Positions 14,855 through 52,744 of a stretch of 64,000 nt of DNA are shown piece by piece; the stretch's first letter is position 1; each line of letters starts with the position of its first letter. Where the stretch lies: positions 4,581,501 through 4,645,500 of the forward strand of contig JAQSEB010000010.1 in NCBI GenBank assembly GCA_030063045.1, given 5' to 3'. The notes under the pieces are model-generated. The model was not told where the DNA came from and did not search any database. It saw only the letters and a list, made by a program, of their open reading frames with translations. The translations under genes were made by a program, and so were the position numbers. Source of the DNA: Pratylenchus scribneri. Taxonomy: Eukaryota > Nematoda > Chromadorea > Rhabditida > Pratylenchidae.

Positions 14855-15533
14855 AAAGAGACAAATCCAAGTGCACAAATGAATGAATGAATGAATATAG
14901 GCATAATAATAATAATATTAAAATAAACAAAAGGCATAATTCACTCTCTATTCCTAATATTTTTTATTAATATATTATTGTTTTTTTTATTCACTCATAA
15001 TTAATTCAATCTGCCATATGAATGATAATGATAATGCCCTATTCCTTTATTAAATATTAATTATTATTATTTGCCCAATTTTGGAATTGCTCATCCACCC
15101 CATCCTCCACAATTGACTCGGACTCAATTTATTATGTGATCGTATAATAATTAATAAATATTAATTGAAAATATGATTAAAATAAACAATTTATTTAAAA
15201 TGAATGAAATTATATTTTTATTTATTTATTATTTTGACAAAGGGCGAAGGGGTCAAAGAACAAAGATTCTTCCCCTTTCCCATGTTTATTCTTCTTTTCC
15301 ATTTAGCCAGAAAGAATAAACAAAAACATCCAATTTTCCATTCCAAATGTCAACATGAATTTTGTTGTTTTCAGGAAAACGGGAAATTTAATCATTAAAA
15401 ATACTCCGAAATTCCTCAATTGTCATCAATTTATTCCATTAAAAAGGTATGTAAAATAATATTCAAATTAATTAAAATTCAATCAATTAATTGCAGAGCA
15501 TCCCCATTATTGATTTTGGGCAGCATCAGGAAA
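14855..15533. other. Intergenic, FCHO 3' end to SPATA20 start
   Basis: AT-rich, with a short (ATGA)n microsatellite at about 14878-14896 and several AATAAA-like signals. A candidate non-coding or alternative 5' exon of SPATA20 may end at a GTATGT donor at 15448, splicing to the AG at 15496. The 64-aa frame at 15204-15398 looks accidental. Confidence 0.45.
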
Positions 15534-18500
15534 ATGTCAGATCGGAAAATGAACAGATTGGCCCAAGAGAAATCCCCGTATTTATTGCAACATTCAACAA
15601 ATCCAGTTGATTGGTTCAAAATAATTGATTAAATTAATTTACATTTAATTTAATTCCTAGGTATCCGTGGGGAGAAGAAGCATTTCAGAAGGCAAGAGAA
15701 TTGAATCGACCAATATTCCTTTCAGGTATTCAATTTGAATTCAATTTATTGATTAATTAATTTTAAATTTTAGTTGGTTATTCCACTTGTCATTGGTGCC
15801 ATGTAATGGAGCATGAATCATTTGAGAATGAGGGAATTGCCAAAATTTTGAATGAAAATTTTGTGAGCATCAAAGTGGATCGGGAGGAAAGGCCGGATGT
15901 GGATAAATTGTATATGTCATTTGTGCAAAGTTTGACCGGGGGAGGTGGATGGCCAATGAGCGTTTTTTTGACCCCAAATTTGGAATCAATTACCGGAGGT
16001 TGGCAATTAAATTGATTTAAATTGAATTAATTTTAAATTTAAAGGAACATATTTCCCACCCGCCGATTCATATGGCCGTTTGGGATTTTCCACAGTGCTC
16101 AAAATGATTTCAGAAAAGGTTAAAATTAATTGGTGAATAAATAATAAATTTCACAAAATAGTGGAAAAATAATGGAGCCGAAATGAGGGAGCAAGGGAGG
16201 GAATTGGCGGCGGCCATCCGAGAAGGAGTTCAACAAAAATCATCAAAAAATATTCCAAATGCCGAAGAAGCAACGGAAAAATGCTTTGAATGGCTTTGCA
16301 AAAAATTCGACTCCAAAAATGGAGGATTTGGGGCCGCACCAAAATTCCCAAAGGCTGGTTGGTTTTTATTATTTAAATTCAAATAAAATTAAAAAATTTA
16401 GTCGATTTGGATTTTCTTCTTTTTTATTTTGCCAACAAAAAGGAAACAGAGGAGGCAAAAAAGGCATTGGAAATGCTTCAATTGACTTTTGGCAAAATGT
16501 TTGAAGGTGGAATTCACGACCATATTGGCAAAGGTTTTCATCGCTATTCGGTCGATTCAATTTGGCGTGTTCCACATTTTGAGGTTAATTCACAATTATT
16601 TTTAAATATAATTTGTTAATTAAATTCAGAAAATGCTCTATGACCAAGGCCAATTACTTCGTTCTTATTCAAATTTTAATAAAATTACCGGCCAATTCGG
16701 GGAAGCAATTTTGGACATTATTGAATATATTCAAACAAATTTGACACATCCTGTTGGTTTTTATTTAATATTTTTTTTAATAATTGAATTAAGCTTGGCG
16801 GATTTTATAGTGCGGAGGACGCCGATTCCCTTCCCAAAGAGGGGGCATCCAAAAAGAAAGAAGGAGCATTTTGTGTTTGGACGAAGGAAGAGGTGGAAAA
16901 TATTTTGGGTGATAGGCCAAGTCGACACAATGAAAATATTTGCCTGGATGAAATTGCCGAAGCCGTCTTCCAAATAATGCCCCAAGGCAATGTTCCATCA
17001 AATGCTGATCCACACGGTGAATTGACCAACCAAAATGTACTCCATTTGGTGGATGAAACGAAGATGGAGGAAATTGCCAAAGAAAATAAAATGACCAAAA
17101 ATGAATTGGCCGAATGCATTTTGGATGCGAAAAGATTTTTGGCAGAAGAACGGAGGAAAAGACCAAAACCACATTTGGACAATAAAATAATCACCGCATG
17201 GAATGGATTGGCTATTTCGGTAAATATTCAATTTAATCAATTATAATAATTATTTATATTTTATTAAGGGAATTTGCGCAGCGGCCCAAGCATTTCCAGA
17301 AAAAGCTGAATTTGTTCAAAGTGCCGAAAAGGCAGTGAAATTCATTCGGCAAAATTTATTCCAAAATGGAGAATTACTTCGTTCAGTTTATGTGGATGAA
17401 CAAAATGATGGGAAAATTGTTCAAATGTGAGTAAATTGCAATGGGAATTGGCTAATTTATTAATTTAGCAATTCACCAATTCGGGCATTCGCCGATGATT
17501 ATGCTTTTTTGATTGAGGCATTACTCGATTTATATTCATTGAATTTTGACGAAACTTTGCTGGAATTGGCAAATGAATTACAACAAAAAATGGATGCCAC
17601 CTTTTGGGATGAGGAAAACAATTCTGGATATTTTATGTCAAGGGCGGATGATCACTCAATAATTTCCCGAATGCAAGATGTACAAGATGGGGCAGAGGTG
17701 GGCATTAAAATGGACTCAATCTACAATTTAATTTAAGCCTTGTGCCAATTCCGTTGCAATTTCCAATTTATTGCGACTTTCTGCCATTCTCAATTCAAAA
17801 CAATTAAAAGAAAAGGCTGAATATTTAGTGAGGGGTGCCGCTCAACGAATCGAAAAATATCCATTCATTTTGCCAAAAATGCTAATTTCCTTGAATGCAT
17901 TGGCCAATCCACCCATTCAGGTAAAAAAATGATCGGTCAAAACATTTTATTAAATTTATTAGATCATTTTGGTTGGCCAAAGTAGCGATGAAAAGACGAA
18001 AGGAATGCTTCGAACAATTCAATCAAAATTCATTCCATTGGGAACTTTGATATTCATTGACAAAGACAAAAAAGGTGGATTGAATTTGGGGTGGAAATAA
18101 ATAAATCTAATCAAAAAAACATATCAATTAATTAAATCAATTACAATCCAAAACACATGTTTTGCCCCATTCTGATTTGTAATTGTGTTTTTGCCCCATT
18201 CTGATTTGTAATTGTGTTTTTGCCACATTCTGATTTGTAATTGTGTTTTTGCCCCATTCTGATTTGTAATTGTGTTTTTGCCCCATTCTGATTTGTAATT
18301 GTGTTTTTGCCCCATTCTGATTTGTAATTGTGTTTTTGCCCCATTCTGATTTGTAATTGTGTTTTGCCCCATTCTGATTTGTAATTGTGTTTTGCCCCAT
18401 TCTGATTTGTAATTGTGTTTTTGCCCCATTCTGATTTGTAATTGTGTTTTGCCCCATTCTGATTTGTAATTGTGTTTTTGCCCCATTCTGATTTGTAATT

Positions 18501-20666
18501 GTGTTATTGCCCCATTCTGATTTGTAATTGTGTTTTTGCCCCATTCTGATTTGTAATTGTGTTTTTGCCCCATTCTGATTTGTAATTGTGTTTTTGCCCC
18601 ATTCTGATTTGTAATTGTGTTTTGCCCCATTCTGATTTGTAATTGTGTTTTTGCCCCATTCTGATTTGTAATTGTGTTTTTGCCCCATTCTGATTTGTAA
18701 TTGTGTTTTTGCCCCATTCTGATTTGTAATTGTGTTTTTGCCCCATTCTGATTTGTAATTGTGTTTTTGCCCCATTCTGATTTGTAAATGTGTTTTGCCC
18801 CATTCTGATTTGTAAATGTGTTTTGCCCCATTCTGATTTGTAATTGTGTTATTGCCCCATTCTGATTTGTAATTGTGTTTTTGCCCCATTCTGATTTGTA
18901 ATTGTGTTTTTGCCCCATTCTGATTTGTAATTGTGTTTTGCCCCATTCTGATTTGTAATTGTGTTTTTGCCCCATTCTGATTTGTAATTGTGTTTTTGCC
19001 CCATTCTGATTTGTAATTGTGTTTTTGCCCCATTCTGATTTGTAATTGTGTTTTGCTCCATTCTGATTTGTAATTGTGTTTTTGCCCCATTCTGATTTGT
19101 AATTGTGTTATTGCCCCATTCTGATTTGTAATTGTGTTTTTGCCCCATTCTGATTTGTAATTGTGTTTTTGCCCCATTCTGATTTGTAATTGTGTTTTTG
19201 CCCCACTGATTTGTAATTGTGTTTTGCCCCATTCTGATTTTTAATTGTGTTTTTGCCCCATTCTGATTTGTAATTGTGTTTTGCCCCATTCTGATTTGTA
19301 AATGTGTTTTGCCCCATTCTGATTTGTAATTGTGTTTTGCCCCATTCTGATTTGTAATTGTATTTTGCCCCATTCTGATTTGTAATTGTGTTTTTGCCCC
19401 ATTCTGATTTGTAATTGTGTTTTGCCCCATTCTGATTTGTAATTGTGTTTTTGCCCCATTCTGATTTGTAATTGTGTTTGCCCCATTCTGATTTGTAATT
19501 GTGTTTTTGCCCCATTCTGATTTGTAATTGTGTTATTGCCCCATTCTGATTTGTAATTGTGTTTTTGCCCCATTCTGATTTGTAATTGTGTTTTTGCCCC
19601 ATTCTGATTTGTAATTGTGTTTTTGCCCCATTCTGATTTGTAATTGTGTTTTGCCCCATTCTGATTTGTAATTGTGTTTTTGCCCCATTCTGATTTGTAA
19701 TTGTGTTTTGCCCCATTCTGATTTGTAATTGTGTTTTTGCCCCATTCTGATTTGTAATTGTGTTTTTGCCCCATTCTGATTTGTAATTGTGTTTTTGCCC
19801 CATTCTGATTTGTAATTGTGTTTTTGCCCCATTCTGATTTGTAAATGTGTTTTGCCCCATTCTGATTTGTAAATGTGTTTTGCCCCATTCTGATTTGTAA
19901 TTGTGTTATTGCCCCATTCTGATTTGTAATTGTGTTTTTGCCCCATTCTGATTTGTAATTGTGTTTTTGCCCCATTCTGATTTGTAATTGTGTTTTTGCC
20001 CCATTCTGATTTGTAATTGTGTTTTTGCCCCATTCTGATTTGTAATTGTGTTTTTGCCCCATTCTGATTTGTAATTGTGTTTTGCCCCATTCTGATTTGT
20101 AATTGTGTTTTTGCCCCATTCTGATTTGTAATTGTGTTTTGCCCCATTCTGATTTGTAATTGTGTTTTTGCCCCATTCTGATTTGTAATTGTGTTTTTGC
20201 CCCATTCTGATTTGTAATTGTGTTTTGCCCCATTCTGATTTGTAATTGTGTTTTTGCCCCATTCTGATTTGTAATTGTGTTTTTGCCCCATTCTGATTTG
20301 TAATTGTGTTTTTGCCCCATTCTGATTTGTAATTGTGTTTTTGCCCCATTCTGATTTGTAAATGTGTTTTGCCCCATTCTGATTTGTAAATGTGTTTTGC
20401 CCCATTCTGATTTGTAAATGTGTTTTGCCCCATTCTGATTTGTAATAAAAATATTTACAATCCAAAATTAATCAAAAAAAACATTAAATTAATCAAATTA
20501 AATTTTTGATTTAGACAAATGGCTGGTTGACCAAAATGACCATTTAAAGGATTATGAAGGAGCATACAAATTGGGACGTCCTTGTGTGTTCATTTGCAGG
20601 GAAATGGCCTGCGAAATGCCAATATATTCAATAGAGGAATTGCAAAAGAAATTGGATGAAATTTAG
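15534..20666 (+). CDS. SPATA20/YyaL-type thioredoxin-domain protein
   Basis: Thirteen exons encode 734 residues (15534-15613, 15661-15725, 15774-15998, 16045-16118, 16162-16357, 16402-16583, 16630-16752, 16794-17219, 17269-17426, 17469-17697, 17738-17920, 17963-18074, 20515-20666). Near the N-terminus [14 protein letters not shown] and the thioredoxin-like motif CHWCHVME are diagnostic, followed by [13 protein letters not shown] and a (alpha/alpha) barrel with the [13 protein letters not shown] and [12 protein letters not shown] signatures. The family's biochemical role is unclear; human SPATA20 is testis-enriched. The frame remains open upstream of 15534 but has no ATG, so a presequence on an upstream exon is possible. 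Intron 12 (18075-20514, 2440 nt) is about 50 times longer than its neighbours because it contains a minisatellite array. Confidence 0.94.
18159..20446 (+). repeat. Intronic minisatellite array A, about 80 copies of a 28/29-bp unit
   Basis: Near-perfect head-to-tail repeats whose plus-strand unit is CCCCATTCTGATTTGTAATT followed by GTG, four or five T and G. The T-run length sets the 28- and 29-bp forms. Rare variants (TTATTG, TAAATG, TTTTTAATT, GTATTTTG, a CCCCACTG unit lacking two or more bases, CCACATTC, CTCCATTC) act as markers; a TAAATG-TAAATG-TTATTG combination occurs near 18785-18850 and again near 19845-19910, suggesting higher-order duplication of about 1.06 kb. It lies wholly inside intron 12 of the SPATA20-type gene, on the sense strand as the C-rich unit. 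The minus strand has no stops in the repeat, which creates long artefactual frames. Copy number is estimated from length. Confidence 0.97.
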
Positions 20667-22884: not shown

Positions 22885-25800
22885 TTAGAATTTGCATTCA
22901 CATCCGCACCCGAGTGGACATTGAGATTGAGCATTGAACCAATTGGCCAAATGCATGAAATGGCCTCCGTGGCCGCATGAATTACACATAGAAATTATTC
23001 CTATTTAAAAAATGAACAATATTTTATGCATTTTAAAAATTAATTTACCTTTGCAAGGTTGCTCGCAAATTGAACAATCTTAACATTAATAATTAATTAA
23101 ATAATTATTTCAATAATTAACGCACAAATTGCTGGGCATCGGCACACAATGCATCCACCAGTTGATGTTGTTCTGCCTTCATTCAATTGTTGGCCACAAA
23201 TTGAGCACCAATTAATTGCTTTAATTAATAAAATATATGTATTCATTTTCACAAAATTGTTTCACCTTTTATGATTCCAATTTTCGCTTCTTCTCCTTCT
23301 GTTTTACAAAATTTGAGCACTTCGGCGCATTTTTTGTGCATTCTCCATCGATACAAAATATCCGCATATTTTCTTTTGAGTTCTTCAAATCGAGTCGACG
23401 ACAAAATTGGATCAAGTAACCTGAAAATGAATAGCTGGCATTAATAGTTTTGTTTAATTGTTTTTTTTAAATTATTTTAAAAAGTGGAAAATTACGAAAA
23501 CAATTAGAAGGCTAAAAGCTTAGTAAAATATTCGTTTTGGCCCCTTTTTGATTTGCATTTTATCCCCATTATAATACTTTTTGACAATTATTTTTTTCAA
23601 TTTTACATTTCACTGTTTGCTTCTTTCTGCGGCAATGGATAATGAATATTAATTTTGGGTGAGGGACTGCAGGAAGAAAAATGTTCTGGCGCAGGTGAAA
23701 GCCTATCTATGGATTGTTTGGAACGGGAGGTGGAGCCAAAATTGTCGATGACGAATGGACGATTCACTAAAATAATTAAAATAAATATATTTATTATTAA
23801 ATATATTTACATGTTGATGATGTTTTCCTGGATGGAATATTTATTGGTGGTAAAGGAATTCGAACATCCAAAGAGGCCATTTGTGGGGGAATTGGTGCCT
23901 CATCCAAATAATTTAATTTTGATGAAATTCGATCCGAACTGATTGGCCTTTTGATGAATTGTTCATTTTGGAAATATTCCCTTTTGGCATTGTTCAGTTG
24001 GGAAAGCACACAAATGATCACAGCGGCTGATTGCAAATCAAATTTATTTGCAAAATGTTCAATTCTTTAATAATATTAATAATTTATATAATTTAAAATT
24101 AAAACTAACATTCGATTGACCAATTCCCTCCCAAATGGATGAATTGCCCATGGAATATCCATTGAGGTATATTTCCCGACTATTTGGCCCATTTTTGTTT
24201 GATCATTGATTCGAAATAATTTGGCAAAATTCTTCATTCTGGCATCCAATTTTGGCAATGGAATTGGTGACCCCGATGAAGGTGTTCGAATACATTGTTC
24301 CACTAATTTCCACATTTCCATCAAATCTTCGCGTCCTTCTACGGCAGCTTGTTCGAAATTATGTTGACAAATTTCCATTGGGGATGAACCCAACAATCTA
24401 AAATAAAATGATGGATTGAATATTTAATTTGGTTTCTTTTTTACTTGTATGTTAATTACAATCCATCAAAAACACGTTAACAAATCAAAATGGGGCAAAA
24501 ACACAATTACAAATCAGAATGGGGCAAAAACACAATTACAAATCAGAATGGGGCAAAAACACAATTACAAATCAGAATGGGGCAAAAACACAATTACAAA
24601 TCAGAATGGGGCAAAAACACAATTACAAATCAGAATGGGGCAAAAACACAATTACAAATCAGAATGGGGCAAAAACACAATTACAAATCAGAATGGGGCA
24701 AAAACACTATTACAAATCAGAATGGGGCAAAAACACAATTACAAATCAGAATGGGGCAAAAACACAATTACAAATCAAAATGGGGCAAAAACACAATTAC
24801 AAATCAGAATGGGGCAAAAACACAATTACAAATCAAAATGGGGCAAAAACACAATTACAAATCAGAATGGGGCAAAAACACAATTACAAATCAGAATGGG
24901 GCAAAACACAATTACAAATCAGAATGGGGCAAAACACAATTACAAATCAGAATGGGGCAAAAACACTATTACAAATCAGAATGGGGCAAAAACACAATTA
25001 CAAATCAGAATGGGGCAAAAACACAATTACAAATCAGAATGGGGCAAAAACACAATTACAAATCAGAATGGGGCAAAAACACAATTAAAAATCAGAATGG
25101 GGCAAAACACAATTACAAATCAGAATGGGGCAAAACACAATTACAAATCAGAATGGGGCAAAACACAATTACAAATCAGAATGGGGCAAAAACACTATTA
25201 CAAATCAGAATGGGGCAAAAACACAATTACAAATCAGAATGGGGCAAAATACAATTACAAATCAGAATGGGGCAAAACACAATTACAAATCAGAATGGGG
25301 CAAAAACACTATTACAAATCAGAATGGGGCAAAAACACAATTACAAATCAGAATGGGGCAAAACACAATTACAAATCAGAATGGGGCAAAACACAATTAC
25401 AAATCAGAATGGGGCAAAAACACAATTACAAATCAGAATGGGGCAAAATACAATTACAAATCAGAATGGGGCAAAACACAATTACAAATCAGAATGGGGC
25501 AAAACACATTTACAAATCAGAATGGGGCAAAACACAATTACAAATCAGAATGGGGCAAAAACACAATTAAAAATCAGAATGGGGCAAAACACAATTACAA
25601 ATCAGTGGGGCAAAAATACATTTACAAATCAGAATGGGGCAAAATACAATTACAAATCAGAATGGGGCAAAACACAATTACAAATCAGAATGGGGCAAAA
25701 ACATAAACAATCGCAAAAAAATTAAAAATAAAAATGATGAATTGAATATTTAATTTGGTTCCTTTTTTACTTGTATGTTTTGGCCAAATTCTGGGACAAT

Positions 25801-51872: not shown

Positions 51873-52744
51873 AATCGTCAGCGGAAAAACTTATTTGTCT
51901 CCCAAAATCGACTTATTTTTGCACCAAATTTTTCCCTCTCCCAAAATCGACTTATTTTTGCACCAAATTTTCACCTCTCCCAAAATCGACTTGTTTTTGC
52001 ACCAAATCGGGGGAATTTGTTTTTCACGTTGTAAATAATATAAAACGATTTTGGGACATTCCTGGGGTACGCGGAAGTCAAAAAGGAGGTGCTCGGGATT
52101 ATGCCGGATATAGGGGGATTAATGTGGATATAGGGGGATTAAGGTGGATATAGGGGGATTAAGCATAGAAATGGATTGGAAATGGCTGGGAAGGCCACTA
52201 GAAAGTCGGTGAAGTATAATAGAGGCCCGGAGAGTGCGCGAGATTTAGCCGGATATAGGGGGATTTAGGTGGATATAGGGATTAAGATGGATATAGGGGA
52301 ATTAAGCCGGATAAGTCTAGTTAGGGGCTAGGGATTAGGGTTATGGTCGGCATGGGATTTAGGGGCTAGGGGCTTAGGGTTATGGTCGGCATGGGATTTA
52401 GGGGCTAGGGGCTTAGGGTTATGGTCGGCATGGGATTTAGGGGCTAGGGGCTTAGGATTAGGGGCTCGGAGCATTGGAATCTCGCGAAGCCGGAAGAAAA
52501 ACAGCCTAAGACAGGACTCGAGCCCATTTTGAGGGACAATTAAGCTTTTCCGTATTAGATTTGAGTAGAGAAAAGAGGAAGTAAATGTGAAAATTCAAAT
52601 TTCCGCCCAATTTGGTGCAAAAACAAGTCGATTTTGGGAGAGGTGAAAATTTGGTGCAAAAATAAGTCGATTTTGGGAGAGGGAAAAATTTGGTGCAAAA
52701 ATAAGTCGATTTTGGGAGACAAATAAGTGGCACGTAATCGTCAG
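51873..52744. mobile_element. Fold-back element with 9-bp target duplication and internal satellites
   Basis: An 854-bp element (51882-52735) flanked by a perfect 9-bp direct repeat AATCGTCAG (51873-51881 and 52736-52744). The arms (about 51890-52008 and 52610-52728) are inverted and each contains three tandem copies of a roughly 36-bp unit with CCCAAAATCGACTTATTTTT. The centre has GGATATAGGGGGATTAA repeats (52108-52320) and three copies of a roughly 39-bp unit with TTAGGGTTATGGTCGGCATG (52330-52460). No transposase. Long structured inverted ends with a 9-bp duplication again suggest a Mutator-like origin; it is unrelated in sequence to the element at 48.4 kb. Confidence 0.93.

What the first reader, a model, noticed from the sequence alone, without database searches (positions are those of the whole stretch)
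25385..25613. Array B contains an ordered variant block identical to part of array A
25385-25613 is the exact reverse complement of about 19200-19430 across eight units, with the same rare variants in the same order (AAAATAC, ACATTTAC, ATTAAAAATC, and a shortened ATCAGTGGGG unit). Independent amplification could not reproduce this. It shows that a multi-unit segment was copied between two loci about 6 kb apart and inverted, for example through ectopic gene conversion, extrachromosomal circular DNA or rolling-circle amplification.
Basis: seen in the sequence. Interest (0 to 1): 0.88.

Follow-up and report, generated by a model that had tools for sequence, protein, structure and literature searches.

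The report
Inverted intronic minisatellites exchanging repeat blocks
Two tandem-repeat arrays that face each other in neighbouring genes of a plant-parasitic nematode carry the same string of rare repeat variants, and related copies of the region suggest that such arrays copy pieces of themselves into each other, a known kind of DNA repair copying that is seen here unusually clearly.

Summary
Unit-order shuffles never reach this run (0 of 5000). Its three-unit core has two exact matches in the 227-Mb genome, one per array. The genome matches Pratylenchus scribneri by size and contig number. The locus exists in four 92-95% identical copies, each with both arrays by flank distance. Edges read at other copies mostly resemble the window's; interiors differ. 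On a second copy (C31), A and B share a different composite with exact matches only there: 1 in A, 4 in B. On C32 a B-specific unit is absent from A; C59, read in part, shows no private A-B sharing. Best explanation: recurrent, local, non-crossover conversion or template switching between inverted intronic arrays, probably B to A. Circular DNA is less likely: no multi-unit block probed was found outside its own locus copy. This process is known for inverted repeats of Caenorhabditis (PMC1803023); it is a clear new example, not a new kind of system.

The parts
18160..20446 (-). Array A: about 79 units of 27-29 bp, reverse orientation
   Evidence: Tandem Repeats Finder; unit decomposition
24467..25703 (+). 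Array B: about 42 units of 27-29 bp, forward orientation
   Evidence: Tandem Repeats Finder; unit decomposition
19195..19451 (-). Shared 257-bp block in array A
   Evidence: Maximal exact match; e-b-c core matched exactly only here and in B genome-wide
25360..25616 (+). Shared 257-bp block in array B; its end is 87 bp from the end of the array
18075..20514 (+). Inferred intron of the + strand gene that holds array A
   Evidence: Read by eye from GT/AG and open frames; no transcript data
15399..20666 (+). Gene with a DUF255/Thioredox_DsbH domain (PF03190) that hosts array A; extent approximate
   Evidence: Pfam hit E 1.6e-39 on 15767-16012, 1 of the 4 segments of this gene tested; other exons by open frame
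24398..25770 (-). Inferred intron of the minus-strand gene that holds array B
   Evidence: Splice signals read by eye on the minus strand; 0 of 4 minus-strand segments tested had a Pfam hit
24392..24453 (+). Left copy of a ~62-bp direct repeat that flanks array B and spans the inferred short original intron
   Evidence: 90% identity to 25717-25779; alignment in three homeologs
25717..25779 (+). Right copy of the direct repeat that flanks array B

Best explanation
Arrays A and B are old, intron-lodged minisatellite arrays in opposite orientation, 4 kb apart, that exchange sequence in cis. Shown: a 257-bp block with a unique order of rare variants is present in both arrays on the window's contig (C10), and a different composite, with exact matches nowhere else, is shared by the same two arrays on the homeologous contig C31. 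Inferred: a break or stalled fork in one array is repaired by invading the inverted partner on the same chromosome or its sister. Synthesis copies a tract of a few hundred bp, and the end is resolved without crossover (synthesis-dependent strand annealing or template switching). Crossover would invert the 4 kb between two introns and swap the ends of two genes, so such products should be lost; the four copies in the assembly are collinear over the parts tested. Direction is probably B to A, because variants e and g occur in B outside the block and not in A outside it.
For: 257-bp exact inverted match. Shuffle and Markov controls. e-b-c core: 2 of 2 matches in A10 and B10. C31 composite: 5 of 5 matches in A31 (1) and B31 (4). 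Four copies with both arrays by flank distance, left flank, spacer and right direct repeat in the same order and strand. Edges resemble the window's at the copies read: B at C31 and C32, A at C31 and C59, except that A59's 5' edge lacks the GGATTGTAA motif. Among six fully read arrays, 15-mer Jaccard is 0.477 for A10-B10 and 0.359 for A31-B31, against 0.143-0.243 for the other 13 pairs. Composition of the block favours B as donor, log10 ratio 1.1-2.2 depending on pseudocount.
Against: Two of four copies do not show it. Unit p of B32 has 6 exact matches, all in B32 and none in A32. The readable parts of A32 (881 bp of ~2.3 kb) and B59 (351 bp of ~3.0 kb) give cis Jaccard 0.259 and 0.241 with no 15-mers exclusive to the pair, while the orthologous pair B32-B59 scores highest of all 28 pairs at k=15, 0.522. 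The C31 signal is weak at longer words: A31-B31 is 0.060 at k=40, below A31-B32 (0.132), A31-B10 and A10-A31 (0.109 each), and 0 at k=87. It is older and diverged (best three local alignments 78.6-84.4% over 276-392 bp) and rests mainly on one distinctive composite. Unit c in the block is common in A and absent elsewhere in B, which speaks against a pure B-to-A transfer. Single unit f of B also occurs once at C32:857323.
Confidence: 0.72

Rival explanations
1. Replication template switching (fork stalling, MMBIR-like) between the inverted arrays copied the block in one step, without classical recombinational repair. The donor is still the partner array in cis.
For: Same local, inverted geometry; the units themselves give unlimited microhomology. 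B lies between two copies of its inferred intron, which an old switching event could also have made.
Against: Nothing here separates it from conversion; block ends lie inside ordinary units without extra junction marks.
Confidence: 0.13
2. Extrachromosomal circular DNA or a rolling-circle product carrying the block inserted into the second array.
For: Tandem arrays readily give circles (general knowledge). The unit family is dispersed in the genome: 1051 exact matches to a 44-mer, the listing being cut after places on C6, C8 and C10. Single units shared with C114 and C32:857323 could be read as traces of spread.
Against: Circles should reach homeologous and unlinked arrays too. Of three probes (two multi-unit blocks and unit p) none had an exact match in another locus copy. 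The block is a single copy in each array, not a tandem multimer.
Confidence: 0.06
3. A and B descend from one inverted duplication and the block is the surviving ancestral order.
For: Both arrays have the same unit and similar edge motifs (AATTACAATCCA).
Against: Both arrays are present in all four 92-95% identical copies by flank distance, yet the block core is in only one of them. Of C10's rare units, d, e, f and g are in none of the four other arrays read in full; c is also in A59. A 257-bp stretch without a change would have to outlast the divergence of the copies.
Confidence: 0.04
4. Assembly or amplification artefact: reads of one array placed in both, or PCR chimeras from the ultra-low-input library.
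For: The library was PCR-amplified from sheared ~10-kb fragments, mean read 7.0 kb, pool of 500 nematodes (PMC10138993).
Against: Both arrays (2.3 and 1.2 kb) are shorter than the mean read. The block in B is 87 bp from the array's end, and in A about 1 kb from either end. Other units are array-private (d, i, k, l in A; f, h in B), so one array is not a misplaced copy of the other.
Confidence: 0.05

Closest known systems
Inverted repeats kept alike within species of Caenorhabditis (Zhao et al. 2007, PMC1803023; abstract and passages read)
   Same: Nematode inverted repeats whose arms are more alike within a genome than orthologous arms are to each other; the authors name gene conversion as one possible mechanism, and also argue for selection on the structure.
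   Different: There, gene and intergenic arms with short spacers (126 bp and 414 bp in the examples read). Here, tandem arrays in introns of two different genes, 4 kb apart, and only part of the arrays is shared.
Minisatellite variant maps and conversion-like mutation, human MSY1 (Shanks et al. 2008, PMC2599865; abstract read)
   Different: MSY1 mutates within one array (or its sister); here the donor is a second, inverted array.
Y-chromosome palindromes (PMC3403216; start of abstract in the listing only, otherwise recalled)
   Same: Arm-to-arm intrachromosomal conversion between inverted duplicates.
   Different: Large unique-sequence arms (recalled) rather than short tandem units.

Membership tests
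Ectopic gene conversion between inverted repeats | A tract identical between non-allelic copies, shared in order, beyond chance | tested here: met
   257 bp, 0 of 5000 shuffles; core with 2 exact matches genome-wide
Ectopic gene conversion between inverted repeats | Copies in one genome copy more alike than orthologous copies (concerted evolution) | tested here: inconclusive
   Met on C10 at every word length tried and on C31 at k=15 and 25 only (for the composite); not seen on C32 or C59, which were read only in part
Ectopic gene conversion between inverted repeats | Non-crossover: flanks and spacer keep their order | tested here: met
   A's left flank, the 4-kb spacer and B's right direct repeat on the same strand and in the same order on all four copies; sequence beyond that repeat was not compared
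Ectopic gene conversion between inverted repeats | Defined donor and recipient | tested here: inconclusive
   Composition favours B as donor by log10 1.1-2.2, but unit c points the other way
eccDNA / rolling-circle reinsertion | Circles carrying the unit, or tandem multimers of one block | not testable with these tools
   No reads; the block is not multimeric in either array
Minisatellite array | Tandem units of roughly 10-100 bp with variable copy number between homologous copies | tested here: met
   Units 27-29 bp; A about 2.3, 2.0, 2.3 and 0.6 kb and B about 1.3, 0.8, 1.7 and 3.0 kb on C10, C31, C32 and C59 by flank distance

The most novel reading that the evidence does not exclude
The inverted array pair is a standing, polarised conversion system: B repeatedly donates tracts to A on each homeolog, crossovers are removed because they would swap the ends of two genes, and the pair therefore records mitotic or meiotic cis-recombination as a readable string of variants, independently on each of four chromosome copies.
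Probability: 0.25. Interest if true: 0.55.

Novelty: new member of a known kind. Interest (0 to 1): 0.4.

Why it matters
Arrays that exchange tracts with the inverted partner beside them, and not with homeologous arrays, would show that homogenisation of dispersed minisatellites is local. Variant strings make donor, tract length and order of events readable, and four copies of one locus give replicates within one genome. That makes the pair a natural reporter of non-crossover repair in a plant-parasitic nematode. The process itself is known.

Tried and rejected
DNA search with the repeat itself returned nothing, because the tool skips simple repeats; exact patterns worked. Boundary patterns meant to catch one hit per array (746 and 555 matches, about the first 100 of each listed) caught mostly internal units of a wider family of arrays with units of about 23-27 bp, and some single chance-like hits, so they did not enumerate the arrays. 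Telomere idea: considered because of the G-run and because the window ends about 19 kb before the end of its contig. Many arrays in the capped listings lie far inside their contigs, so I dropped it without a formal test. Mobile-element origin of the arrays: both lie between short direct repeats (B ~62 bp, spanning its inferred intron; A about 30 bp, imperfect, read by eye). No element sequence other than the units was noticed at the edges, so this was not pursued. Sharing of single units with unlinked arrays (deletion unit on C114, unit f on C32:857323) was judged recurrent mutation: the C114 unit is followed by a different sequence, while the sequence around C32:857323 was not read.

Full report
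What was claimed and what is there. That is correct. The maximal exact match is 257 bp, 25360-25616 (+) against 19195-19451 (-). Array A (18160-20446) has about 79 units and array B (24467-25703) about 42. In unit letters, A read in reverse contains ...aiab-aebcbgb-j... and B contains ...fabb-aebcbgb-m...; the shared run is b-a-e-b-c-b-g-b plus the first part of a unit with a 2-bp deletion. Unit counts outside the block are 70 in A and 33 in B; e and g occur 0 and 0 times in A, 2 and 1 times in B; c occurs 7 times in A and 0 times in B.

Is it more than chance? Because the units are so alike, long 98% inverted matches are the background here, so I scored runs by the rarity of their units. Observed 23.8 bits; 5000 shuffles of unit order gave at most 16.4; Markov strings at most 22.2 (block transitions included) and 12.5 (block removed), 2000 each; A against B in reversed unit order 9.8; the best repeat inside A 17.9 and inside B 10.3. 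In the whole assembly the 84-bp core e-b-c has 2 exact matches, one in each array. The deletion unit has 3 matches, the third on C114, where the following bases differ. All genome-wide probes were exact, so diverged copies would be missed.

Where we are. The window is G000:C10:4581501-4645500 of an assembly of 227,248,964 bases in 276 contigs. The published assembly of the root-lesion nematode Pratylenchus scribneri has 276 contigs and 227.24 Mb (PMC10138993: outline with abstract, passages, tables and methods read). I infer that this is the organism. The library was PCR-amplified HiFi, mean read 7.0 kb, from 500 nematodes.

Gene setting. Array A sits in what looks like the last intron of a + strand gene with a DUF255 thioredoxin-like domain in one of its early exons (PF03190, E 1.6e-39; 1 of 4 segments of the gene tested had a hit). 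Array B sits in an inferred intron of a minus-strand gene (0 of 4 segments tested had a Pfam hit). Splice sites were read by eye; there is no transcript evidence. B is flanked by a direct repeat of about 62 bp, 90% identical, which spans the end of the exon and the short original intron as I read it. The repeat is aligned in three homeologs (C10, C31, C32), and its right copy is also detected on C59. Whatever placed array B there is therefore probably older than the split of these copies.

Four copies of the locus. The 4-kb spacer has three further copies at 95% identity (C31, C32, C59), and A's left flank has the same three at 92-94%. By distance between flanks, A measures about 2.3 kb (C10), 2.0 (C31), 2.3 (C32) and 0.6 (C59), and B about 1.3, 0.8, 1.7 and 3.0 kb. 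Edges read at other copies (B on C31 and C32; A on C31 and C59) resemble those in the window, except that A59's 5' edge lacks the GGATTGTAA motif; the edges of A32 and B59 were not read. Interiors differ strongly: in the six arrays, d, e, f and g are found only on C10, o only in A31, r and s only in A59, p and AATTCAG units only in B32; a later partial read of B59 also shows an AATTCAG unit.

The second instance. On C31, A and B share a composite unit (AAATCAGAATGGGGCAAAAACACTTTAATGGGGCAAAA) with 5 exact matches genome-wide, 1 in A31 (reverse) and 4 in B31 (forward), and a further unit, t, found only in these two of the six arrays. The best three local alignments around it are 78.6-84.4% identical over 276-392 bp, so this sharing is older than that on C10. 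Among the six fully read arrays (15 pairs), the two cis pairs have the highest 15-mer Jaccard, 0.477 and 0.359, against 0.143-0.243 for the rest.

Results against. On C32, unit p has 6 matches, all in B32. With two partial arrays added (881 bp of A32, 351 bp of B59; 28 pairs), the highest 15-mer value is the orthologous pair B32-B59, 0.522; the cis pairs on C32 and C59 have 0.259 and 0.241 and no 15-mers exclusive to them. There, at k=25, A31-B31 is fifth of 28 (0.239). Among the six full arrays A31-B31 falls to 0.060 at k=40, below three other pairs with A31, and to 0 at k=87, while A10-B10 stays first throughout. Single unit f of B has 4 matches in B and 1 at C32:857323. So cis exchange is clear on C10, supported by one composite on C31, absent for one probe on C32, and not seen in the small part read of C59.

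Mechanism. Shown: two different blocks, each with exact matches only in the inverted pair on one chromosome copy. Inferred: local non-crossover repair copying. Crossover between inverted arrays would invert the spacer and exchange the ends of two genes; left flank, spacer and right direct repeat are collinear on all four copies, which fits loss of such products or rarity of crossovers. Composition makes B the likelier donor (log10 ratio 1.1-2.2), and on C31 the composite is 4 times in B and once in A, but unit c argues the other way on C10. Template switching during replication cannot be told apart from conversion here. Circles are less likely, because the three probes had no exact match in another locus copy or elsewhere.

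What is known. Caenorhabditis inverted repeats whose arms are far more alike within than between species were described in 2007, with gene conversion as one proposed cause and selection on the structure as another consideration (PMC1803023, abstract and passages read). Conversion-like changes of minisatellite variant order without an allelic partner are known from human MSY1 (PMC2599865, abstract read). The present case joins the two: inverted tandem arrays, readable by variants, in four copies. It is a new member of a known kind.

Noticed in passing
51889-52728: An 840-bp element with 123-bp inverted ends, 99% complementary, built of 39-bp tandem units and with G-rich 20- and 39-bp repeats inside; looks like a small DNA transposon or MITE.
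   Followed up: partly
Fetched loci on C1, C2, C4, C6, C8, C10, C114: A wider family of 23-30-bp minisatellites built on AATCAGAATGGGGCAAAA, with many subfamilies. Loci at C6:59 kb, C6:136 kb and C2:4.56 Mb carry it beside the same exon-like sequence, apparently in one intron of paralogous genes.
   Followed up: partly
C10, C31, C32, C59: Four copies of this region at 92-95% identity, whereas the assembly paper concludes a diploid genome; hints at an old duplication or polyploidy.
   Followed up: no
24392-24453 and 25717-25779: Array B lies between two copies of the sequence that spans its inferred host intron, as if the intron had been duplicated when the array arose.
   Followed up: partly
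C10:3995 kb to 4109 kb: Several further arrays of the same 29-bp unit in one orientation, a few kb apart (capped listing); only the first was fetched, and they could test exchange between direct arrays.
   Followed up: no
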